12,761 bases of DNA from Streptomyces sp. NBS 14/10. GTDB taxonomy: Bacteria > Actinomycetota > Actinomycetes > Streptomycetales > Streptomycetaceae. Under the pieces are notes generated by a model. It was not told where the DNA came from, ran no database searches, and saw nothing but the letters and a program-made list of their open reading frames with translations. The DNA is taken from the NCBI RefSeq assembly GCF_002224125.1, contig NZ_NCSM01000090.1:1-12761 (forward strand), written 5' to 3'. This document shows, piece after piece, positions 1,312 through 12,761 of this stretch. Numbering within the stretch: the first letter of the stretch is position 1; each line of letters starts with the position of its first letter. Made by a program: the position numbers and the translations under genes.

Positions 1312-1995
1312 ATGAGCAAGCTACCTGCACGGATCCGACTGGCAGATGCCGCGTTCGCGCTCTTCGACGAGCGCGGATACGAGCAGACGACCGTCGAAGA
1401 CATCGCTGAGCGAGCGGGGCTCGGGCGCACGACGTTCTTCCGCAACTACCGTTCCAAGGAAGACGTCATCTTTCCGGACCACGACCGGCTCCTGGCGTTG
1501 ATCAGAGATCGGCTGGCGACCTCGAGCCACAGCACCGCCCTGGTCGCCGTGTCGGACGCGGTTCGACTCGTACTGCTGCACTACGTGGATGAGGGCGACC
1601 TGGCGAGGCGGCGATACGCCCTCACGAGCAAGGTGGCTGCCCTGCGTGACCGGGAGATCGCCAGTGTGGGCCGCTACCAGCGACTGTTCCGGGAGTTCAT
1701 CGCGGACTGGATGGGGGGTCCGACGGAATCGGCGTCGCTGAGGGCCGAACTCATGGCCGCCGCGGTGGTCGCCGCTCACAACCACGTGCTGCGTCGCTGG
1801 CTTCGGGGCGAGTCGTCCGACCCGGTCGCCGAGGTGGACGAGGCGATGCGTGAGGTGCTCGCCCTCTTTCGGGCGCCCGGCTCCTCACCGGAGCCCGGCG
1901 CTGGTACCACCGTCGTCGCGTTCAGGACCGGGCAGGACCTCGAAGCCCTGCTTCCCTCCCTGCGGCGTCTCGTCGAGGACGGCGCCGAGCACTGA
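1312..1995 (+). CDS. TetR/AcrR-family transcriptional regulator (divergent from DUF35 gene)
   Basis: This 227-residue protein has a typical TetR N-terminal DNA-binding domain. The helix-turn-helix covers about residues 27-46 (TVEDIAERAGLGRTTFFRNY), preceded by ADAAFALFDERGYEQT. The C-terminal part is alpha-helical and ligand-binding in character, without a motif I can assign to a ligand class. The ATG at 1312 follows GGGGGA at a suitable distance; an upstream open extension is not domain-like. Being divergent from a DUF35 protein and near an acyl-CoA carboxylase suggests an acyl-CoA-responsive repressor. A streptomycete TetR repressor of short-chain acyl-CoA metabolism, AccR, is known, but orthology cannot be shown here. 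The three 13-bp palindromes in the shared intergenic region are its likely targets. Confidence 0.85.
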   Translation: MSKLPARIRLADAAFALFDERGYEQTTVEDIAERAGLGRTTFFRNYRSKEDVIFPDHDRLLALIRDRLATSSHSTALVAVSDAVRLVLLHYVDEGDLARRRYALTSKVAALRDREIASVGRYQRLFREFIADWMGGPTESASLRAELMAAAVVAAHNHVLRRWLRGESSDPVAEVDEAMREVLALFRAPGSSPEPGAGTTVVAFRTGQDLEALLPSLRRLVEDGAEH

Positions 1996-2151: not shown

Positions 2152-3274
<1,123 letters not shown>

Positions 3275-3284
3275 TCGGAATATT

Positions 3285-3295
3285 GACACCCTTCA
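3285..3295 (-). repeat. Right terminal inverted repeat of the first IS
   Basis: GACACCCTTCA is the reverse complement of the left end. Its outermost TCA, read on the minus strand, is TGA and serves as the stop codon of the truncated neighbouring transposase. Confidence 0.75.
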
Positions 3296-4110
3296 GGACT
3301 GCGGGGCGGTCTTCAGGGTTTCGATGTCCTCGGCTTCGAAGACCGCGTCGAAGGACTCGGTGTATTTGCTGTCCCGGTCGCGGCTCAAGAAGCGCAGTGA
3401 CTCCAGGGGCATTCCCTCGTGGAGGGCAAGGTTGCGGGCTTGCTGGGCTGTCCACTGTGCGGTCGGATGTGCGGTCACCCCGGCGACGTGGAGGCGGCGT
3501 GTACCGTGCTCGAGGAAGACCAGCGCGTAGACCCGCCGAAGATCCACCAAGTCGATGTGCAGGAAGTCGCAGGCGATGATGGCGCCGGCCTGAGCCGTAA
3601 GGAACTCGCGCCATGTCGGCCCGCTGCGGCGAGGAGCAGGGTCGACACCGGGCGTCGTCAAGATCTTCCAGACCGCGGAGGCGCCGACTCTGTGGCCCAG
3701 CCGGGCGAGCTCACCCTGGATTCTGCGGCAGCCCCAGCGCGGGTTCTCCTGCGCCAGCCGGAGCACCAACCTCTTCACAGCTTCCGCTGTCGGCGGCCGG
3801 CCCGGCTTGCTCCGGCGCTCACTGTAGTCCCACCTGCGTGCAACGAGACGTCGATGCCAGCCGAGCAACGTCCCCGGCGTCACGCGGAAACCCGTGCCCA
3901 GCGCGGCCGGGGTATCAGCGAGGACAGTGCCACGAACCACAGCCGGTCCGCCCACTCGTACCGCACAGGACCCGCGAGTTGCCTGCGTAGCACCACGTTC
4001 TCATGCCGAAGCACCAGCAGTTCGGCGTCCTCGCCTACCTGCCTGCGTAACAGCACCGCCGGAACGGAGAGCAGCCTCCGCGTCACCTGATACACCAGTG
4101 AGACGATCAC
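3293..4110 (-). pseudogene. Truncated and frameshifted integrase-core transposase of the second IS
   Basis: The first segment (GTG at 4110, reading VSLVYQVTRRLLSVP...) carries the helix-turn-helix part up to RPRWARV. One base is missing in GGGTTTCC near 3888; restoring it leads into RVTPGTLLGWHRRL, GRPPTAEAVKRLVLRLAQENPRW and the catalytic core. The first Asp (ACDFLHIDLVDLRR) and second Asp (RDRDSKYTESFDAVF) are present. The Glu-containing third of the rve domain is absent, since the frame ends TAPQS then TGA, where the TGA belongs to the first IS. It is dead on two counts. The transposase is about 70% identical by eye to the third IS's protein near 12305. Confidence 0.85.
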
Positions 4111-4168
4111 CCAGACATGATCCCAGCGTGCCCACGAGGCCACCAGACAGCCTAGGAACTGCAGCGAC
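3296..4168 (-). mobile_element. Remnant of a second IS, 3' end lost at the junction with the first IS
   Basis: The 5' part of an IS on the minus strand. Its upstream (right) limit is estimated at about 4168 because similarity to the third IS in this window fades beyond TCGCTGC there. Its downstream third is missing at the exact edge of the first IS and does not reappear left of 2084, so a deletion accompanied or followed that insertion. Confidence 0.65.
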
Positions 4169-4837
4169 GCATTTCTGAACGGCACAGGATGACCTTCGAG
4201 CCGGCCTGGAGCTCCTGGCCAAAGACCTCAAGGACTCGCGCAACCCTCGGACGTGGTGCTCACCCTGCTGGCCGCACTGTCCGACCACAGCAGGCACAGG
4301 TCACCTGGTGAGCCAGATCCCCTCATGCAGCCTCTCGACTGCAAGGCTCCGGCATCCTCAAGCTCCCCGGCACCCTGCGACATCCGCGGCCGAATCCTGC
4401 ATCTGCTCCAGATGACCCCCGAGCAGGACCATCGGCCGAGTAGCCGGGGCATGTGCCCAGTGCGGTGCCACCGATGGCCTGCGCGACGGCGGGATTACGT
4501 ACAGGTGACACGACCGCGGGGGAGGCTCCGGCGGCGCTGCTGATGCCCCCCGCGTTCCGGCCCACCGCCGGCCCCACCGTCAAGGCCGCCTGGAAAGGGC
4601 GGCGAACGTCTGCCATGACTGCCCAGCAGATCCCGGGCTGCACGAGGTCCGACGGAAGTGAATACGACTGTACGAAAAAACAACGTAGGTGGATTTCGCG
4701 CCTCAGTGCATCAATATGTGCCAGTTCCGCCTTCACCGGGACGGGTGGCGACTGCTGTAATTCCTTGAAAACAATTGACAGGGGGGATTCCTGCGCGGGG
4801 CCGTGAAACCACGTCGAGCCGCGCGGAAGGAGTTCAC
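4169..4837. other. Gene-free stretch before the beta-propeller gene
   Basis: I recognise no intact gene here. Open frames on both strands lack domains and have weak codon bias. The first part (4188-4300) may be decayed coding sequence. GC content drops noticeably at about 4655-4785, with runs such as ACGAAAAAACAACG and TTGAAAACAATTGACAGG; this probably contains the promoter of the propeller gene. TTCACC and TGTAAT, 18 bases apart around 4731-4760, and TTGACA at 4775-4780 are candidate boxes, none convincing. The propeller gene's Shine-Dalgarno site, GGAAGGAG, is at the right end. Confidence 0.45.
4188..4300 (+). pseudogene. Possible decayed coding fragment of unknown function
   Basis: From 4188 the reading DDLRAGLELLAKDLKDS looks protein-like, then stops making sense after RNP. 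Shifting by one base gives DVVLTLLAALSDHSRH, which fits a continuing helical protein with good GC3. A single lost base near 4247 would join the two. There is no start codon with a ribosome binding site and no family I recognise, so this may be chance. Confidence 0.2.
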
Positions 4838-6277
4838 ATGTCACTCCCCGCCTCACCACCCCAAGAGACCACACTCGCGAGCCGGACCTCATCCACGGAA
4901 CCGCCCGCCCCCTACACCGTCCCGCTGACGCAGATACCCGTAGGCCACGGCCCCATCGGTATCGCCATGGCACCCGACAGCACGCACGCCTACGTCACCA
5001 ACTTCGGCTCCGGCACCGTCAGCGTCATCAACACCCCCACCAAGACCACGGCCGCCACCGTCCCCACCGGGGCCGGCCCCTGGGGAATCGCGGTCTCCCC
5101 TGACAGCACCCGCGCCTACGTCGCCAACTTCGGAGACAACACGGTCAGCGTCCTCGACACCACGACGAACACCGTCCCCGACACCATCCCCGGGATCACC
5201 AGCCCCATCGGCGTAGCCTTCGCCCCCAACGGACGGTTCGCCTACGTCGTCAGCCAGGGAACCAACGCCGTCGTGCGAATCGACACCACCACCCACACAG
5301 CCCTCGCGACCGTGCCCGTCGGCACCAGGCCGTACAACGTCCTCATCACCCCCGACAGCACCCGCGCCTACGTCACCAACTTCGGCGAAGACACAGTCAG
5401 CGTCATCGACACCACCACCGACACCGTCCTGACCACTATCCCCGGCTTCAACCTCCCCCGCGCCCTGGCCCTCACCCCCAACGGCCTGCGCCTGTACGTG
5501 ACCGACTACGGCGGCAACACAGTGTCCGTCGTCAGCACCTCGAGCAACTCCATCACGCACACGATCAGCGGCCTGTCCATCCCGTTCTACGTCGCCATCG
5601 CCCCCAACGGCGGATACGCCTATGTGAGCGTGGACGGCACCAGCGCGGTGCAGGTCCTCAACCCCGCCACCGGCACCGTCACGGCCACCGTGCCCGGCTT
5701 CAACGTGCCCAACTGGCTCGCGGTCACCCCGGACAGCCGGTTCGTGTATGTGGTCAACAACGGCGGCGACTCGGTCAGCATGTTCCGGTCCCCCCGCGGC
5801 ATCGTGCCCGGCCAGGGCCCGATCGGAGGCGGGACCACGGTGACCATCACCGGCCAGAACCTCACCGGTGCCACCGCTGTGACGTTCGGCTCACGGGCGG
5901 CCAGGAACTTCACCGTCCTGGACGACAACACGATCACAGCAGAGACCCCAGCAGGAACCGGCGCCGTACAGGTGACCGTGACCACCCCCGGCGGGACCGG
6001 AGTCCTCGGCCACTTCTACTACATCCCCCCACCCCGCCTCACCAGCCTGATGCCCTCCAGCGGCCCGGCGGAAGGCGGCAACATCGTAGGCATCAGCGGC
6101 ATCTATCTCAGCACCGCCACCGAGGTGAGGCTCGGAACCACACGCCTGATCCCCACCGTGGACTCCGACAGCCAGATCACCGTGACCGCCCCAGCAGAAC
6201 CTGGACCAGGAAACATTCCGGTCCAGGTGATCACCCCAGGAGGCCCCTCCGACACCCTCACCTACACCTACACGTAG
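4838..6277 (+). CDS. Seven-bladed YVTN beta-propeller protein with two C-terminal IPT/TIG domains
   Basis: This is a 479-residue protein. Residues about 26-315 are seven repeats of 42 residues. Each has the pattern P-x(5)-A/V-x-x-P-D/N-x(4)-YV-x-x-x-G-x-x-x-V-x-V-x(2)-T, with YVTNFG, YVANFG, YVVSQG, YVTNFG, YVTDYG, YVSVDG and YVVNNG in blades 1 to 7. This is the YncE/YVTN (surface-layer) propeller family. Two immunoglobulin-like IPT/TIG domains follow (about 318-396 and 398-479), each with the GPxxGG...VxIxG signature. The ATG at 4838 follows GGAAGGAG at five bases. No signal peptide or membrane segment is visible; the first 25 residues are Ser/Pro/Thr-rich. The likely role is protein or ligand binding, possibly at the cell surface, but export is unexplained. 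It lies alone between mobile-element remnants. Confidence 0.85.
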   Translation: MSLPASPPQETTLASRTSSTEPPAPYTVPLTQIPVGHGPIGIAMAPDSTHAYVTNFGSGTVSVINTPTKTTAATVPTGAGPWGIAVSPDSTRAYVANFGDNTVSVLDTTTNTVPDTIPGITSPIGVAFAPNGRFAYVVSQGTNAVVRIDTTTHTALATVPVGTRPYNVLITPDSTRAYVTNFGEDTVSVIDTTTDTVLTTIPGFNLPRALALTPNGLRLYVTDYGGNTVSVVSTSSNSITHTISGLSIPFYVAIAPNGGYAYVSVDGTSAVQVLNPATGTVTATVPGFNVPNWLAVTPDSRFVYVVNNGGDSVSMFRSPRGIVPGQGPIGGGTTVTITGQNLTGATAVTFGSRAARNFTVLDDNTITAETPAGTGAVQVTVTTPGGTGVLGHFYYIPPPRLTSLMPSSGPAEGGNIVGISGIYLSTATEVRLGTTRLIPTVDSDSQITVTAPAEPGPGNIPVQVITPGGPSDTLTYTYT

Positions 6278-6311: not shown

Positions 6312-6956
6312 GTGAGGAACCACCGCTTGGAGCGACAGAGCGGTCGATGCCCTGACGCGAACCTTCAGAAACAGCTTCTGAAGCGCATCGCCACCCACTG
6401 GCCGGACATGCTCCGGGTTGCCGGATCCCTGATCACGAACCAGGTCAGGGCGTACGACCTGCTGCGGATGTTCGGCCGCGAGGGCCACCCCACCCCGCTG
6501 GGGGCGGCGTTCGCCGAGTACGGGCGCATCGACAAAACCATGCACCTGCTCGCCCTGGTCGACCCGGTCGACGACACCTACCGGCGGCTGATGAACCGGC
6601 AGCTCACCGTGCAGGAGTCCCGCCACCGCCTCGCCCGTGCGATCTGTCACGGCGGCCGGGGCCAGATCCGGCAGGCGTACCGCGACGGCCAGGAGGACCA
6701 GCTCGCCGCCCTCGGCCTGGTCCTCAACGCCATCGTGCTGTGGAACACCCGCTACCTGGACGCCGCCGTCGCGAAGCTCCGCGCCGAGGGCCGCGACATC
6801 AAGGACGAGGACGTCGCCCGCCTCCCCCCTCTCAAGGATTGGCACATCAACTTCCTGGGCCGCTACCTGTTCAACATCAAGGCCACCGGCACCGGCCAGA
6901 GCCTGCGCCCCTTCCGCGACCCGGACGCCGTCGAGGACGATGAGAACGAGGACTGA
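6312..6956 (+). pseudogene. C-terminal fragment of a Tn3-family transposase (TnpA)
   Basis: The 214-codon frame matches the C-terminal fifth of Tn3-family TnpA from about residue 26 (THWPDMLRVAGSL). It includes AFAEYGRIDKTMHLL, NRQLTVQESRHRLARAICH, GQEDQLAALGLVLNAIVLWNTRY, EDVARLPPL and the acidic tail DPDAVEDDENED. Full-length TnpA is about 1000 residues, so the N-terminal DNA-binding region and both catalytic aspartates are gone; only the region of the catalytic glutamate (probably in QESRH) remains. The GTG at 6312 has no convincing Shine-Dalgarno site and the first 25 codons are unrelated sequence. I found no terminal inverted repeat after the stop. It is a relic marking a past transposon, not a working gene. 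Confidence 0.85.
6345..6390. repeat. Bulged inverted repeat at the Tn3 fragment's breakpoint
   Basis: An inner perfect stem, CTTCAGAA (6363-6370) with TTCTGAAG (6376-6383), has a five-base loop. An outer pair, CGATGC (6345-6350) with GCATCG (6385-6390), encloses it, with a 12-base bulge on the left arm. It lies exactly where recognisable TnpA sequence begins, so it could be a recombination site or junction structure. Confidence 0.5.
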
Positions 6957-7019
6957 CGGCGGTGCACTCGACAACCTGCACGAGTACCGGCACTTGGGGC
7001 TCACGGGCCTCGACGAGGG

Positions 7020-8306: not shown

Positions 8307-8687
8307 TCAAGCCTGCAACAACGTGGACGCGTAGGCGGGGTTGGTGTAGTCGCGCCAAGCCGCGATCCTGCCGTCGCGGAGCTCGTAGATCGCCATGTTC
8401 ATCACCGGGGCGAGCTTCCCGCCGGGCAGGGCGAGCCCGTGGATCTGCTCGGCGATGACGATGTCACCGTTCACCGCCTGGTGCACGGTCTCGAACTTGA
8501 TCTGTGCGAAGTTCGCGAAGACGCCCTTCCACAGGGCGACCACCGCGTCGCGCCCCTCGACCGGGGAGTCGCCGTAGGCGGTGAAGACGACGTCATCGGC
8601 AAGGAAGGGGGCAAGGGCATCGGCGTCCTGAGCGTTGAAGGCGTTCACGAAGTCGCGGACGAGTGTGTCGTTGTGGGTGGCAGGCAT
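8307..8687 (-). CDS. NTF2-fold protein resembling limonene-1,2-epoxide hydrolase but lacking its catalytic Arg/Asp
   Basis: This 126-residue single-domain protein has the NTF2/SnoaL cone fold: helix VRDFVNAFNAQDADALAPFL, strand VVFTAY, and the terminal DGRIAAWRDY. That last motif is shared with limonene-1,2-epoxide hydrolases (LEH), where the Asp of WRDY is one of the catalytic trio. Aligned by eye with Rhodococcus LEH, D113 is kept. The Arg99/Asp101 pair (TERVD) is Q81/H83 (AEQIH), and Tyr53/Asn55 become F35/A37. It is therefore unlikely to hydrolyse epoxides by the LEH mechanism and may be an isomerase, cyclase or binding protein of the SnoaL class. The start follows AGGGAGA. It is preceded by a copy of the cluster's 16-bp operator and followed closely by the oxidoreductase gene. 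Confidence 0.8.
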   Translation of the reverse strand: MPATHNDTLVRDFVNAFNAQDADALAPFLADDVVFTAYGDSPVEGRDAVVALWKGVFANFAQIKFETVHQAVNGDIVIAEQIHGLALPGGKLAPVMNMAIYELRDGRIAAWRDYTNPAYASTLLQA

Positions 8688-8755
8688 GTCGAGGGTCTCC
8701 CTGTGGGTCGGTGCATGTGTGTGTTCGGTTGTCGCCGAGCGCAGGACGAATCTTC

Positions 8756-8771
8756 TGGACTAGCAAGTCCG
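8756..8771. promoter_or_regulatory. Putative TetR operator B1 (16-bp palindrome)
   Basis: TGGACTAGCAAGTCCG lies 69 bases upstream of the LEH-like gene, inside the 296-bp gap after the epoxide hydrolase gene. Read toward the gene it is almost identical to operator B3 (GGACTTGC, then two variable bases, then GTCC). Both carry a TTGC that could be part of a -35 box; here I find no good -10 at 16-18 bases. The rest of the gap shows only a small GCCGG-AA-CCGGC hairpin at 8805-8816. Confidence 0.6.
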
Positions 8772-8983
8772 GAAAATCGCTCCACATGATGCGCCCGCGT
8801 CTATGCCGGAACCGGCGTCGGTGGCGACAGGGGCGGGCGCGGCTGGGCTGTTGCGCCGCGGAAGACGGTCATGTCCCGGGGGGACTCGGCCGTACCGCGG
8901 TCGGACAGCACCCGGTGAGGCAGCGGCACGGTGTCTGGCCTGCTGTTTCCGGGACTGGAGCAGGAGGCCCGTCGCCCGCGGGG

Positions 8984-10222
8984 TCAGCCACCGATCCTGC
9001 GGAAGGTCTCGACGAGGTCGGAGGTGAACGCCTCGGGGTTCTCGTAGTGGACGAAGTGGCCGCCCTTCATATGGGCATTGACGTTGACCACGTTGAAAGA
9101 ACTGCGCGTGGGCCCGTTCTCGAAGAGGGCGATGCGCTCTTCGACGGTGTTGATGGCGGGCGGATAGGCGTCACCGAGCAGGAAGGTGAAGCCGGCCGGC
9201 GGCTCGACGACGGGCCGACGATCGTGGGAGGGCACCCACGGGTGACGCACCGCGTTGCGGTACATCCGGATCGAGGTGCCGATGGACTGCGTCACCCAGA
9301 AGACGGTGGCCTGGGTGAGGATGAAGTCGCGGGGGAAGTCCTCCTCGAAGTTGCCCCGCTTGTCGCTCCACTTCTTCCACCGCCGCAGCAGCCAGGCGAG
9401 CATCCCGCTGGGGGAGTCGTTCAGACCGTGGGTGAGGGTCGAGCCATCCAGCATGTGCACAGCGACGTGGGAGACATACGTGTTGACGAAGTTCTCCAAG
9501 CCCTCCCGCAGCTCCGGCGCGGCGTCCTCGGGGATCTTGCTGCCGTCGGTCAGGTCCCAGAACCGCTCGTTGGCGAACTGACCCGGAGGCATGTCGTGGC
9601 CGTAGTGCAGGCCGATGATGCTGTCGGCGTACTTGTGGCCGAGCGCACTCGTCACCAGAGCACCGTAGTCGGAACCCGCCGCCCCGTACTTCTCGTAGCC
9701 CAGCACCTCGGTCATGAGCCTGTGCAGGATGTCGGCGATCTTCCAGTAGTTCAGATCGCCTCTGACGACAGGAGTGGACCAGGCGAAGCCGGGCAGGTCC
9801 GGGATGATGACGTCGAACGAGACGGACGGGTCACCGCCATGGGCGGCGGGGTCCGTCAGCGGCCCGATGAGCCCGTAGCTGAACTCGCCGGGCCACGGCC
9901 ATCCGGGGCTGATGATGAGCGGGATCGGGTTCGGGCCCTTGCCGCGCTCGTACACGAAGTGCACGGGTGCGCCGTCGATCTCGACCTTGTGCTGGTTGTA
10001 GGCGTTAAGCCGCTTCTCCTGCGCACGCCAGTCGAAGCCGTCCGCCCAGTACTCCACGAGCGGCTTCAGATAGGCGGTGCTGATGCCATAGTACTCCTCC
10101 TCGTTGTCCAGGTCGTCGAAGAAGCGGGTCTTCTGCAGGCGGTCCTTGAGGTCGTCGAGGGCGTCCTGGGAGACGTCGATGTGGTAGGGCTCCAGCGCGA
10201 CGGGCTTGTTGCTGTTGCTCAT
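8984..10222 (-). CDS. EHN-type alpha/beta-hydrolase epoxide hydrolase
   Basis: This 412-residue protein has an N-terminal EHN domain (about 10-115, including FDWRAQEKRLNAYNQHKVEI) followed by an alpha/beta-hydrolase core. It belongs to the microsomal-type epoxide hydrolases that open epoxides to vicinal diols through an Asp ester intermediate. The nucleophile elbow is GSDYG with D185, and the catalytic His is H389 in KGGHFVHYENPE. DLPGFAWSTP (142-151) is the conserved strand motif before the elbow. One oddity: the usual HGWPG oxyanion motif reads SPGWPWPGE (105-113), with Pro in place of His. The ATG at 10222 is chosen because family similarity starts there; the open extension upstream overlaps the previous gene. 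It lies 61 bases after the SnoaL-like gene and probably shares its transcript. The natural substrate is unknown. Confidence 0.88.
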   Translation of the reverse strand: MSNSNKPVALEPYHIDVSQDALDDLKDRLQKTRFFDDLDNEEEYYGISTAYLKPLVEYWADGFDWRAQEKRLNAYNQHKVEIDGAPVHFVYERGKGPNPIPLIISPGWPWPGEFSYGLIGPLTDPAAHGGDPSVSFDVIIPDLPGFAWSTPVVRGDLNYWKIADILHRLMTEVLGYEKYGAAGSDYGALVTSALGHKYADSIIGLHYGHDMPPGQFANERFWDLTDGSKIPEDAAPELREGLENFVNTYVSHVAVHMLDGSTLTHGLNDSPSGMLAWLLRRWKKWSDKRGNFEEDFPRDFILTQATVFWVTQSIGTSIRMYRNAVRHPWVPSHDRRPVVEPPAGFTFLLGDAYPPAINTVEERIALFENGPTRSSFNVVNVNAHMKGGHFVHYENPEAFTSDLVETFRRIGG

Positions 10223-10283
10223 GGCGATGCTGCTTTCTGTTGGATTGAAAGGGAATTTGTTGCTGAAGGGGTCACGGAAGGGG

Positions 10284-10742
10284 TCAGGCGGTGAAGTCCA
10301 GACGGACTCGGGTCTGCTTGAGCTCGGCGATCTGCCAGGAACCATCGATCTTGACGAAACGTGCGTGGTAGTGGCCGAAGCCGTGCATGCCCCTGAAGGG
10401 AATGGTCTCGGACACCGCGGCGCCCTCGGGACGGGTGACGATGTCCTCCATCGCGAACACGCCGTGGGCGGTGGTCTCCGAGTCGACGTCGATCTCATCG
10501 GAGAACAGGTGGTGGATCAGGGTGACGCCGGGGCCGCCGCTGGAGCCGACCGTCGCGGCGATCTCGTCCCGGCCGTTCATATGCAGCCACACCGTTCCGT
10601 CCGGCTTGTGCGGGCTGAACGTACCGTCAGGTGTGAACAGGTTCGCCAGGTCGTCCCAGCGCTGGTGATCCGCATAACGGACGTAGCGGGCCATCAGACG
10701 GCGGAGTTCCTCGGTGATGCTGAGGCGCTCAACAGCTTCCAT
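10284..10742 (-). CDS. SnoaL-like NTF2-superfamily protein, first gene of the cluster
   Basis: This 152-residue protein has the fold order of SnoaL-like/scytalone-dehydratase-like proteins: helices ITEELRRLMARYVRYADHQRW and LANLFTPDGTFSP, a second helix GRDEIAATV, then the strands LIHHLFSDEIDVD and FGHYHARFVKIDGSW. The paired histidines in LIHHL and the Tyr and Asp of the first helix occupy the pocket positions used by dehydratases and isomerases of this group. The reaction cannot be named from sequence. The ATG at 10742 follows AAGAAGGAAG, a strong site. It is the promoter-proximal gene of the leftward cluster, with two 16-bp operators around a candidate promoter about 100-150 bases upstream, and it precedes the epoxide hydrolase by 61 bases. 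Confidence 0.82.
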   Translation of the reverse strand: MEAVERLSITEELRRLMARYVRYADHQRWDDLANLFTPDGTFSPHKPDGTVWLHMNGRDEIAATVGSSGGPGVTLIHHLFSDEIDVDSETTAHGVFAMEDIVTRPEGAAVSETIPFRGMHGFGHYHARFVKIDGSWQIAELKQTRVRLDFTA

Positions 10743-10837
10743 GATCGATCTTCCTTCTTGACGTCATGCACGTGCACCGTGGGCCGGCGACCAAGCGGCC
10801 TGTGATGCGGCCACCACCGGGGTATTCCGAGCCTCTG

Positions 10838-10853
10838 TGGACCGTTTGGTCCA
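10838..10853. promoter_or_regulatory. Putative TetR operator B2 (16-bp perfect palindrome arms)
   Basis: TGGACCGTTTGGTCCA has perfect six-base arms. It lies immediately downstream of the candidate -10 of the leftward cluster, over the expected transcription start. Its centre is 37 bp from B3. Confidence 0.65.
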
Positions 10854-10856
10854 TTC

Positions 10857-10885
10857 ATCATGCGTCCCCAAAACTGGACCGGCAA
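10857..10885 (-). promoter_or_regulatory. Candidate promoter of the leftward epoxide/NTF2 cluster
   Basis: On the minus strand TTGCCG (10885-10880) and CATGAT (10862-10857) are separated by 17 bases. The -35 box lies inside operator B3, and operator B2 covers the start region, the arrangement expected of a repressed promoter. The leader before the first start codon would be about 110 bases. Confidence 0.5.
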
Positions 10886-10890
10886 GTCCA
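10875..10890. promoter_or_regulatory. Putative TetR operator B3 (16-bp palindrome)
   Basis: TGGACCGGCAAGTCCA has perfect five-base outer arms. It overlaps the candidate -35 box of the leftward cluster and closely matches B1. Confidence 0.65.
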
Positions 10891-11144
10891 AACATGAGAG
10901 ACGTCGGCCACAGGACCCGACTGGCTGCGTCATGCAGCAGCGCTCGCGCCAAGCAGGCCGCCGACAGGCGCGGCATGTGTGCCGGGCGAAGCCGCGGCAA
11001 GTCTCCGGACGGTGCAAGGTGCGCGGCGGGTCGGTATTTGAATTCCAGGTGGCGGAAGCAGTAGGCGGGGCCCATTCGGCGGAGCAGTCGACGGTGGCCG
11101 TCCAGCCCTGGAGGCGGTTCGGGGTGCCGTTACGGGCTCAAGAA

Positions 11145-11160
11145 TGGACCAAAGAGTCCA
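11145..11160. promoter_or_regulatory. Putative TetR operator B4, upstream of the tetR gene
   Basis: TGGACCAAAGAGTCCA ends 21 bases before the preferred tetR start, so binding there would block transcription of the regulator itself. The close spacing and lack of a clear Shine-Dalgarno site suggest a very short leader or a leaderless message. Confidence 0.65.
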
Positions 11161-11181
11161 AAAGTGTGCGATGATGTGAAG

Positions 11182-11784
11182 ATGAAGAAGGGGCTGACTG
11201 CTAAGGGTAGGGCGACTCGACAGCGCATCGTTGTTGCCGCGGCGCTTCTGATCCGGGAGAAGGGGATCGCCGACACGTCGCTCGACGATGTACGGGCGGC
11301 CACGGCGACCAGCAAGAGCCAGCTGTTCCACTACTTTCCCGAGGGCAGGTCCGACATTCTGGCTGCCGTCACCGAGTACGAGGCCGCGCAGGTCCTGGAG
11401 GCGCAGCAGCCGTTTCTGGGCGATCTTTCGACGTGGGAGTCCTGGCAGGATTGGCAGCACGCGGTGCTCACCCACTACACGGAACTGGGGCGGCGCTGCC
11501 CCCTCGGCAGCCTCACCGCGGAGCTGGGCAAATCCTCCCCGCAGACTCGCGCAGTCGTCTCCTCTCTCTACGACAAGTGGGAGGCGGCGCTCGTGCGCGG
11601 TGTGGAGACGGTGACGTCCGCTGGGCGCGACGCGGCACTCGGTCGTGCGCGCAGCATCCTGACCGCCGTCCAGGGCGGGGTCGTGATGCTCCAGACGACC
11701 GGGCGCACGGACTATCTGGAAGCAGCGCTGACCGAGGCAATCAGCCCGCTACGACCCGTGGGTACTCAGGTCGTGTCGGTGTGA
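11182..11784 (+). CDS. TetR-family regulator, LmrA/YxaF-like, likely repressor of the epoxide/NTF2 cluster
   Basis: This 200-residue protein has a TetR helix-turn-helix at about residues 33-52 (SLDDVRAATATSKSQLFHYF). Its C-terminal domain carries CPLGSLTAELG (from C106), a hallmark of the LmrA/YxaF-like TetR subgroup. Bacillus subtilis YxaF and LmrA repress flavonoid-related genes and respond to flavonoids, so a small aromatic or xenobiotic ligand is a reasonable guess. The ATG at 11182 is preferred; GTG at 11176 and 11164 are in frame and would add two or six residues. No start has a good Shine-Dalgarno site. It is divergent from the four-gene leftward cluster, and the 16-bp palindrome at 11145, repeated upstream of two cluster genes, is its likely operator. 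Repression is inferred from site positions. Confidence 0.87.
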   Translation: MKKGLTAKGRATRQRIVVAAALLIREKGIADTSLDDVRAATATSKSQLFHYFPEGRSDILAAVTEYEAAQVLEAQQPFLGDLSTWESWQDWQHAVLTHYTELGRRCPLGSLTAELGKSSPQTRAVVSSLYDKWEAALVRGVETVTSAGRDAALGRARSILTAVQGGVVMLQTTGRTDYLEAALTEAISPLRPVGTQVVSV

Positions 11785-12250: not shown

Positions 12251-12761
12251 ATCGCTGCTGGTCAAAAGGCCACGGCCGCCGCGTAGTACTGCGATCCTGG
12301 TTGGATGGTCGTGTCGCTTCTCTACCGGATGACTCGATGTCTTCTCTCTGTTCCAGCAGTGCTCCTACGGCGGGACACCTCGAAGGAGGCTGAGCTTCTC
12401 GTCCTGCGGCACGAAAACGCTGTGCTACGACGCCAGCTGCGGGGGCGGGTACGGTACGAGCCTGCGGACCGTTTCTGGTTCGCAGCCCTGTCCGCGCTGA
12501 TCCCCCGCCGCCGCTGGGCCAAGGTCTTCCCGGTCACGCCGAGCACGCTGCTGGCCCTGGCACCGCAGGCTCGTCGCCCGCCGATGGGACCACTCCCGAC
12601 GACGCCGAGGTCCCGGACGGCCGCCCACGCAGGCCGCCATCAAGAAGCTCGTGTTGCGCCTTGCCCGTGAGAACAGCCGATGGGGCCATCGCCGGATCCA
12701 GGGTGAACTGGCCCGGCTCGGACAGCCGATCGCCGCCTCCACCGTCTGGCAGATCCTCCAC
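12251..12761 (+). mobile_element. 5' part of a third IS, continuing past the window
   Basis: The left limit is estimated at about 12251, where similarity to the upstream region of the second IS (ATCGCTGC, about 53-57 bases before the transposase start in both) begins. The 3' end and its terminal repeat are beyond the window, so the ends cannot be confirmed. Confidence 0.6.
12305..12761 (+). pseudogene. Integrase-core transposase of the third IS, frameshifted, 5' part only
   Basis: From ATG 12305 the frame reads VSLLYRMTRCLLSVP, ELLVLRHENAVLRRQL and IPRRRWAKVFPVTPSTLLA. At 12555-12557 there are three C where the homologous second IS and the first IS imply two (CTGGCCTGGCAC gives LAWHRRL). Removing one C restores WHRRLVARRWDHSRR, GRPPTQAAIKKLVLRLAREN and RRIQGELARLGQPIAASTV to the window end. 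The catalytic rve domain lies outside. The protein is clearly homologous to that of the second IS (about 70% identity by eye) but oriented oppositely. The one-base insertion suggests an inactive copy. Confidence 0.8.

What the first reader, a model, noticed from the sequence alone, without database searches (positions are those of the whole stretch)
8756..11160. Four copies of a 16-bp palindrome mark the regulon
TGGACTAGCAAGTCCG (8756), TGGACCGTTTGGTCCA (10838), TGGACCGGCAAGTCCA (10875) and TGGACCAAAGAGTCCA (11145) fit TGGACY-N4-RGTCCA. All four are intergenic, upstream of cluster genes or of tetR, and two bracket a 17-bp-spaced promoter. I found no copy inside a gene. This is strong internal evidence for a single regulator's operator.
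Basis: seen in the sequence. Interest (0 to 1): 0.72.

Follow-up and report, generated by a model that had tools for sequence, protein, structure and literature searches.

The report
TetR repressor's conserved operator-promoter switch
The four short mirror-image DNA sites are almost certainly the landing pads of a neighbouring TetR-type repressor that shuts off a small set of detoxification-type enzyme genes; the same pads, built into the same kind of promoter, recur with relatives of this repressor in many soil actinobacteria, so it is a new example of a known kind of genetic switch.

Summary
In detail: three exact copies and one (8756) with one mismatch of TGGACY-N4-RGTCCA lie between genes; 0 of 200 shuffles give four. 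Comparison strongly supports one regulator's operator. Of 80 loci encoding relatives of the 11182-11784 TetR, 51 have an exact copy and 67 one with at most one mismatch within 200 bp upstream of tetR; of gaps 0-12 only 4 works. The site contains the -35 box, with a YANNNT -10 box 17 bp on in 48 of 64 oriented sites. A DNA-only search for this composite found 77 of 392 genomes of the genus (reversed control 0); 75 of the 77 encode the TetR, against 7 of the other 315. Genes beside the sites are mostly SDR, AKR, MDR, epoxide-hydrolase-like, SnoaL or MFS. Correction: the -35 lies inside a site, so the two sites do not merely bracket the promoter. Closest known: LmrA/YxaF (QdoR) and NemR; E. coli nemR has TAGACCGACTGGTCTA, same spacing. 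Binding and inducer are untested. New member of a known kind.

The parts
11145..11160 (+). Operator of tetR itself (TGGACCAAAGAGTCCA), covering the -35 region of the tetR promoter
   Evidence: Exact motif; 37 bp before the start codon, and at -34 to -40 in many relatives
11170..11175 (+). Probable -10 box GATGAT of tetR, 6 nt before the ATG, i.e. probably a leaderless mRNA
   Evidence: A [CTG]ANNNT hexamer 6 or 7 nt before the nearest ATG in 25 of the 59 loci that have an ATG there; gaps of 3-5 and 8-15 nt give 0-5 each
11182..11784 (+). TetR-family repressor, LmrA/YxaF-like C-terminal domain
   Evidence: PF21993 30.3 bits (cut-off 27) and PF00440 29.4 (cut-off 24); best solved relative YxaF 1sgm
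10875..10890 (-). Operator 1 of the SnoaL_4-EHN operon; contains the -35 box
   Evidence: Exact motif; only exact composite operator-promoter in the genome
10880..10885 (-). -35 box TTGCCG inside operator 1
   Evidence: Read from sequence; TTG at this place on one strand in 60 of 134 sites with at most 1 mismatch, on both strands in 2 more
10857..10862 (-). -10 box CATGAT, 17 bp from the -35
   Evidence: Composite match 10857-10889 minus, 0 mismatches; spacer 17 in 48 of 64 oriented sites
10838..10853 (-). Operator 2 of the SnoaL_4-EHN operon, starting 3 bp after the -10 and covering the expected transcription start
   Evidence: Exact motif; 12 of 14 downstream neighbour sites within 60 bp of a one-sided TTG site lie 33-37 bp on; 37-bp pair kept in the relative L156
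8756..8771 (-). Operator of the SnoaL_2-MDR operon, one mismatch; contains the -35 TTGCTA (8766-8761)
   Evidence: exact copy TGGACTAGCAAGTCCA at the orthologous place of L156 (3458)
8738..8743 (-). -10-like hexamer TGCGCT of the SnoaL_2-MDR promoter; the relative has TACGCT
   Evidence: Composite match 8738-8770 minus with 1 mismatch; G153:C4:87939
10284..10742 (-). SnoaL_4-domain protein (target)
   Evidence: PF13577 92 bits
8984..10222 (-). Epoxide-hydrolase-like alpha/beta hydrolase with EHN domain (target)
   Evidence: PF06441 105.8 bits, PF00561 31.9 bits
8307..8687 (-). SnoaL_2 / limonene-epoxide-hydrolase-like protein (target)
   Evidence: PF12680 80 bits, PF07858 47 bits
7252..8223 (-). 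Zinc-type (MDR) quinone-oxidoreductase-like enzyme (target)
   Evidence: PF00107, PF13602, PF08240; NCBIfam quinone reductase subfamilies below their cut-offs

Best explanation
The four palindromes are operators of the TetR-family repressor at 11182-11784. A repressor dimer on TGGAC-N6-GTCCA covers the -35 box of a promoter; at the SnoaL_4-EHN promoter a second dimer sits just after the -10, over the start site, so RNA polymerase is shut out. The repressor also represses itself through one operator over its own -35 region. An inducer, most likely a reactive or hydrophobic carbonyl, quinone or epoxide compound that the target enzymes remove, releases it. Shown here by computation: the sites, their conservation, and their co-occurrence with the TetR and with promoter elements. 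Inferred: binding, repression and its direction. Guessed: the inducer, and a sensing role for Cys106.
For: Footprint: 51 of 80 relatives exact and 67 of 80 with at most 1 mismatch within 200 bp upstream of tetR; 359 permuted palindromes average 0.11 loci exact (the two highest, 23 and 9, are near-variants of the motif itself); of gaps 0-12 only 4 gives exact hits; 0 exact sites in 45.6 kb of tetR coding DNA. Anchored only on GAC-N6-GTC, 56 of 80 loci hit (200 mononucleotide shuffles: mean 1.6, max 6), and the outer letters, NOT anchored, come out T 56/56, G 53/56, C 56/56, A 55/56. Promoter grammar: -10 at spacer 17 in 48 of 64, at 16 in 1, at 18 in 2. DNA-only search: composite in 77 of 392 genomes, reversed control in 0 of 392; TetR (E<=1e-38) in 75 of these 77 and in 7 of the other 315. 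Of the 86 composite sites, 30 came back as loci: all 30 adjoin an SDR, MDR or SnoaL gene, 27 of 30 a TetR relative within about 1.5 kb. In the relative L156 the sites stay with their own genes although the operons lie elsewhere relative to tetR.
Against: No binding or expression data. 13 of 80 relatives have no site with at most 1 mismatch within 200 bp upstream, 7 of 80 none within 1 kb; two of these 7 (L098, L105) have a drifted TGTAC-N6-GTACA instead. 7 of 82 TetR-bearing genomes lack an exact composite site, and 2 of 77 site-bearing genomes lack a TetR at E<=1e-38; one of the two, G172, has a 38% relative beside its sites. 22 of 86 sites are not within 3 kb of a listed tetR. Genomes of one genus are related, so the association does not count independent events. 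The 8756 promoter is degenerate in this genome. The bare motif at one mismatch (211 against 331 for the control) and the composite at two (25+41 against 37+44) show no genome-wide excess.
Confidence: 0.9

Rival explanations
1. The palindromes are operators, but of another regulator (for example another TetR of the genome); the 11182 TetR is merely linked.
For: The genome holds 9 further TetR relatives at E<=0.001, and the window itself holds another TetR at 1312-1995.
Against: The site lies upstream of this TetR's relatives in several families and, searched by DNA alone, leads back to this TetR group in 75 of 77 genomes. The 9 paralogue loci have no copy with at most 1 mismatch.
Confidence: 0.05
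2. The sites bind the TetR but it activates, or the second (10838) site is inert and only the -35 site matters.
For: Single sites are common among relatives: a second site 33-37 bp downstream was seen for 12 of 60 one-sided TTG sites.
Against: A site on top of the -35 and one over the start fit repression. Where pairs exist the 33-37 bp distance is mostly kept (12 of 14), including in L156.
Confidence: 0.08
3. Chance palindromes in GC-rich DNA, or a transcription-terminator or IS-end repeat.
For: The cluster lies among transposase pieces; with one mismatch the bare motif is frequent in the genome.
Against: 0 of 200 shuffles reach four sites; conservation upstream of tetR relatives with varying N4 cores; no terminator-like pattern found at 8600-11250.
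Confidence: 0.01

Closest known systems
QdoR/YxaF and LmrA of Bacillus subtilis (LmrA/YxaF-like TetR repressors)
   Same: Closest solved relative of the TetR is YxaF 1sgm (E 1.5e-13) and the C-terminal domain is PF21993 LmrA/YxaF-like. Same plan: two operators at the target promoter, one at the regulator's own promoter, autorepression (PMC8481877, passages seen).
   Different: The target differs (quercetin dioxygenase there). The QdoR operator letters were not in the passages seen; the TAGA-type half-sites with another gap that I recall were not tested. PF21993 score is only just above its cut-off.
NemR of Escherichia coli (nemRA-gloA; electrophile and bleach sensor)
   Same: nemR has TAGACCGACTGGTCTA 14 nt before its start, an exact fit to TRGACY-N4-RGTCYA, i.e. 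the same geometry with A for G at position 2 (at up to 2 mismatches 0.8 matches are expected by chance in the 5 kb searched, this one has none). Target genes are a reductase and a glyoxalase; cysteines sense (PMC5297802, passages). That NemR binds this very sequence is not from a call.
   Different: Low sequence similarity (hhalign probability 21.7%, E 0.001); NemR has 6 cysteines; the matching cysteine is ambiguous (see membership test).
McbR of Corynebacterium glutamicum
   Same: TetR-type regulator with operator TAGAC-N6-GTCTA, as quoted in PMC9210681 (passage seen): same gap, one letter different per half-site.
   Different: Controls sulphur metabolism (recalled); relation of the proteins was not tested.
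AltR of Pantoea ananatis (NemR-like)
   Same: Inverted repeat CAATCTAC-N6-GTAGATTG over its own promoter and a required Cys100 (PMC13178969, passages seen): same N6 geometry, autorepression.
   Different: Different half-site and target genes.

Membership tests
TetR family | N-terminal TetR_N helix-turn-helix | tested here: met
   PF00440 29.4 bits, cut-off 24, residues 16-63
TetR family | Binds a palindrome in the promoter as a dimer and is released by a ligand | not testable with these tools
   Palindrome found and conserved; binding and ligand need experiment
LmrA/YxaF-like TetR subfamily (PF21993) | TetR_C_13_2 C-terminal domain at or above the gathering score | tested here: met
   30.3 bits against 27
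LmrA/YxaF-like TetR subfamily (PF21993) | Autoregulation with one operator at its own promoter and two at a target promoter (as in QdoR) | tested here: inconclusive
   The anatomy fits: 11145 alone for tetR, 10838+10875 for SnoaL_4-EHN; regulation itself was not tested
NemR group | TAGAC-type half-site with N6 between | tested here: inconclusive
   Same geometry; position 2 is G in 53 and A in 3 of 56 aligned sites; the E. coli nemR site has A
NemR group | Redox-active Cys106 | tested here: inconclusive
   Cys106 of the window protein is Cys in 80 of 81 aligned sequences (window plus 80 loci), Arg in L104. MAFFT and hhalign put NemR Cys98 opposite it; an ungapped C-x4-L-[ST]-A-E reading by eye would put NemR Cys106 there. 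No predicted structure was obtained.
ScbR-type and mycofactocin MftR regulators | NCBIfam equivalog score above cut-off | tested here: not met
   ScbR 27.2 against 150; MftR 18.9 against 224.9

The most novel reading that the evidence does not exclude
A pan-actinobacterial electrophile/carbonyl-stress switch: one repressor subfamily with one nearly invariant operator-promoter module (TGGAC-TTGNNR-GTCCA, 17-bp spacer, YANNNT, sometimes a second operator 33-37 bp on) that has been re-attached to unrelated enzyme classes (SDR, AKR, MDR, EHN hydrolase, SnoaL, MFS pump) several times, so that the cis module evolves as a portable cassette while the enzymes are swapped, with the conserved Cys106 as the sensor.
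Probability: 0.3. Interest if true: 0.55.

Novelty: new member of a known kind. Interest (0 to 1): 0.4.

Why it matters
It turns one four-site observation into a tested genome-reading rule: a 34-base DNA pattern alone finds members of an actinobacterial repressor group, for which I found no name in print, and their likely target genes. That makes inducer searches, reporter and biosensor parts, and the question of what these reductases and hydrolases are for directly testable. The kind of system itself is familiar.

Tried and rejected
Rejected: chance, terminator, operator of a paralogous TetR, defence system (no PADLOC match for the 5 proteins), ScbR/MftR membership. Bare-motif genome scans at 1 mismatch, and composite scans at 2 mismatches, are uninformative. 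A YANNNT box just before the tetR operator was looked for and not found as a rule (at most 5 of 62 loci at any one offset); a box 6-7 nt before the start codon was found instead.

Literature: eight answered searches (listings) showed no paper that reports TGGAC-N6-GTCCA as a TetR operator. Letter searches returned mostly unrelated oligonucleotides and only the top 20-30 of hundreds of papers were listed; only open-licence PMC is held, so this is weak evidence of absence. Passages were seen of eight papers: PMC8481877, PMC9210681, PMC8176726 (CssR, a different and longer motif), PMC13178969, PMC6476934 (QsdR, no operator letters in the passages), PMC5297802, PMC3739934, PMC5500506 (GdmRIII, a non-palindromic site; its matching letters are in primers).

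A structure prediction of the TetR had not finished at seven collecting calls, so no fold comparison was made.
Full report
What was checked. The window is the whole of contig C118 (12,761 bp) of a 12.15-Mb genome in 127 contigs; its genus is Streptomyces by inference, since contigs of genus-mates G153, G077 and G364 have the lengths of Streptomyces records that one search lists. Four such sites at one mismatch are not chance: 200 shuffles average 0.14 and never exceed 2. The genome has 13 exact places; the ten others each lie in an open frame of at least 288 codons, while the three here are covered only by frames of 104-254 codons with GC3 of 0.64-0.72 (judged by ORF length and GC3, with no annotation, and L006 is unclear).

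Genes. The TetR at 11182-11784 carries TetR_N and the LmrA/YxaF-like C-terminal domain PF21993, both just above Pfam cut-offs; its nearest solved relative is YxaF (1sgm). Divergent to it lie a SnoaL_4 protein and an epoxide-hydrolase-like EHN protein (10742-8984), then a SnoaL_2/limonene-epoxide-hydrolase-like protein and an MDR-type reductase (8687-7252). The sites stand before SnoaL_4 (10875, 10838), before SnoaL_2 (8756) and before tetR (11145).

Footprint. A scan of genome contigs with an alignment of 48 relatives kept the 80 best of 109 loci, 43-81% identical to the window protein. 51 of 80 have an exact site and 67 of 80 a site with at most one mismatch within 200 bp upstream of tetR; 359 palindromes made by permuting the half-site average 0.11 loci exact and 0.42 within one mismatch (the two highest, 23 and 9 exact, are near-variants of the motif itself); of gaps 0 to 12 only 4 gives exact hits; none lies in 45.6 kb of tetR coding DNA. 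Thirteen loci have none within 200 bp; seven have none within 1 kb. Two of these seven, L098 and L105, have TGTAC-N6-GTACA at -53 and -32 instead, and four loci of the same part of the tree (L095, L097, L099, L103) have one arm of each kind: the operator drifts arm by arm there. Anchored only on GAC-N6-GTC, 56 of 80 loci have a hit at -80 to -12 (200 mononucleotide shuffles: mean 1.6, maximum 6), and the outer letters, which were not anchored, are T 56/56, G 53/56, C 56/56, A 55/56, while the inner four vary.

Promoter grammar. In 60 of 134 sites with at most one mismatch (plus two symmetrical ones) the core reads TTG on one strand at a fixed place, giving TGGAC-TTGNNR-GTCCA, i.e. a -35 box built into the operator. 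Counted over both strands, 64 such oriented sites have a [CT]ANNNT -10 box at spacer 17 in 48 cases, at 16 in one and at 18 in two. For the 60 one-sided sites, 14 further sites lie downstream within 60 bp, 12 of them 33-37 bp on, so that they begin at or just after the -10 and cover the expected start; five more lie 29-34 bp upstream. In the window this is TTGCCG-17-CATGAT on the minus strand with the second operator 3 bp further on. tetR itself has a hexamer GATGAT 6 nt before its ATG; such a hexamer at gap 6 or 7 is found in 25 of 59 loci with an ATG there, so its mRNA is probably leaderless and its operator covers the -35 region.

Own genome. Searching 12.15 Mb with a 33-letter form of the composite pattern, the only exact place is 10857-10889 minus, and 8738-8770 minus is one of three places with one mismatch; at two mismatches there is no excess over control. 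So the regulon in this strain is, as far as this grammar tells, this locus.

Blind test. The 34-letter composite alone, with no protein, was searched in 392 genomes of the genus: 77 have it (86 sites), 0 have the reversed pattern. A separate protein search, which scored the 8 best first-look candidates per genome, found the TetR at E<=1e-38 in 82 of the same 392. Both occur in 75, site only in 2, TetR only in 7, neither in 308 (Fisher p about 1e-69, which ignores kinship). Of 86 sites 64 lie within 3 kb of a listed tetR. For the 30 sites returned as loci, all 30 adjoin an SDR (24), MDR (4) or SnoaL (2) gene and 27 have a TetR relative within about 1.5 kb. Of the 22 sites not within 3 kb of a listed tetR, 21 were looked at (19, two; G111 was not); all 21 have a gene of the SDR, AKR, MDR, SnoaL, EHN or MFS query families downstream, although some matches are weak (MFS 30% in L160, SDR 32-34% in L169, L173, L175, a partial SDR in L165). 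Four of these 21 sites (one in L154, two in L163, one in L164) do have a TetR relative within the fetched stretch that the threshold had missed. I searched these loci only with my own set of query proteins, so other neighbours were not looked for.

Targets. Of 64 oriented sites in the window and the 80 loci, 60 had a called target; recurring families are SDR (19 loci), AKR (17 loci), SnoaL_2 (5) and EHN (5), SnoaL_4 (3), MFS (2), and one MDR; the rest are single calls of doubtful value, one being a tetR itself. Ten representatives were confirmed by Pfam. On a tree of the regulators the four target classes SDR, AKR, EHN/SnoaL and MDR need 7 changes (3 is the minimum, shuffles average 26), so the enzyme attached has changed several times. 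Labels cover 52 of 82 rows and rest on the neighbouring gene; two of the three MDR rows (L098, L105) carry the drifted operator. Among the 19 loci of the window's own clade (57% identity or more), 14 have an EHN-type gene nearby, one of them only 28% identical.

Nearest synteny. In L156 (G153, whose contig length equals that of the S. spinoverrucosus record of L027) the SnoaL_2-MDR genes (92-93% identical) keep an exact operator at 3458, tetR (80%) keeps 6320, and SnoaL_4-EHN (93-94%) keep the 37-bp pair 14540/14577, but these blocks lie kilobases apart, with an additional MFS-EHN stretch behind a site with one mismatch at 6968. The blocks have been rearranged and each kept its own operator, which is what a trans-acting repressor allows. 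The window's 8756 copy is the degenerate one, in both operator and -10.

Mechanism. Best reading: autorepressed TetR switch; one dimer over the -35, a second over the start at the SnoaL_4-EHN promoter; release by a small molecule. Steps shown: sites, grammar, conservation, co-occurrence. Steps inferred: binding, repression. The inducer is a guess from the target classes (NAD(P)H reductases of three folds, epoxide-hydrolase-like enzymes). Cys106 is kept in 80 of 81 sequences, which suggests a role, but thiol sensing is only an analogy with NemR and AltR (passages).

Comparison with the known. QdoR/YxaF shows the same plan of two operators at the target and one at its own gene (PMC8481877, passages). 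E. coli nemR has TAGACCGACTGGTCTA just before its start, and McbR is quoted with TAGAC-N6-GTCTA (PMC9210681, passages): the geometry is a known one for TetR proteins, and the G at position 2 is the difference. The kind of system is known; the group and its operator code were not found in the open literature searched (eight listings, see Tried and rejected), a weak negative.

Noticed in passing
window 2155-3274, 3293-4185, 6312-6956, 12305-12670: Transposase pieces on both sides of the enzyme cluster: an IS transposase split over two frames, an IS piece on the minus strand, the C-terminal piece of a Tn3-type transposase (PF01526), and near the contig end a fragment without Pfam match that resembles the 3880-4185 piece by eye. 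The cluster sits in a mobile, rearranged neighbourhood.
   Followed up: partly
window 1312-1995 (+): A second TetR with an MftR-type C-terminal domain (PF17754), scoring 91 bits against the MftR model, far below its cut-off of 224.9.
   Followed up: no
window 4838-6277 (+): Protein with YncE/lactonase-type beta-propeller repeats and two TIG stretches, apparently unrelated to the regulon.
   Followed up: no
L098:-53, L105:-32, L095:-28, L097:-27, L099:-28, L103:-30 (from the tetR match start): Operator drift in Pseudonocardiaceae relatives: TGTAC-N6-GTACA in two loci and mixed TGGAC-N6-GTACA in four. It offers natural intermediates for a repressor-operator co-evolution study.
   Followed up: partly
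L047:3949, L052:3949, L065:3248: A small Streptomyces clade has TAGACC instead of TGGACC in one arm only, the letter found in the E. coli nemR site.
   Followed up: no
L156:14773-16215 (-): In the S. spinoverrucosus-like relative an aldehyde dehydrogenase gene (PF00171) lies upstream of the SnoaL_4-EHN operon, which would fit aldehyde metabolism; no operator with at most one mismatch lies before it.
   Followed up: no
L020 at -116 and -93 (own-genome TetR paralogue, C13:175871): Two TGTACC-N4-GGTACA palindromes (TGTACCAGACGGTACA, TGTACCGATTGGTACA) 23 bp apart upstream of another TetR gene: perhaps that paralogue's own operators, with the same geometry.
   Followed up: no
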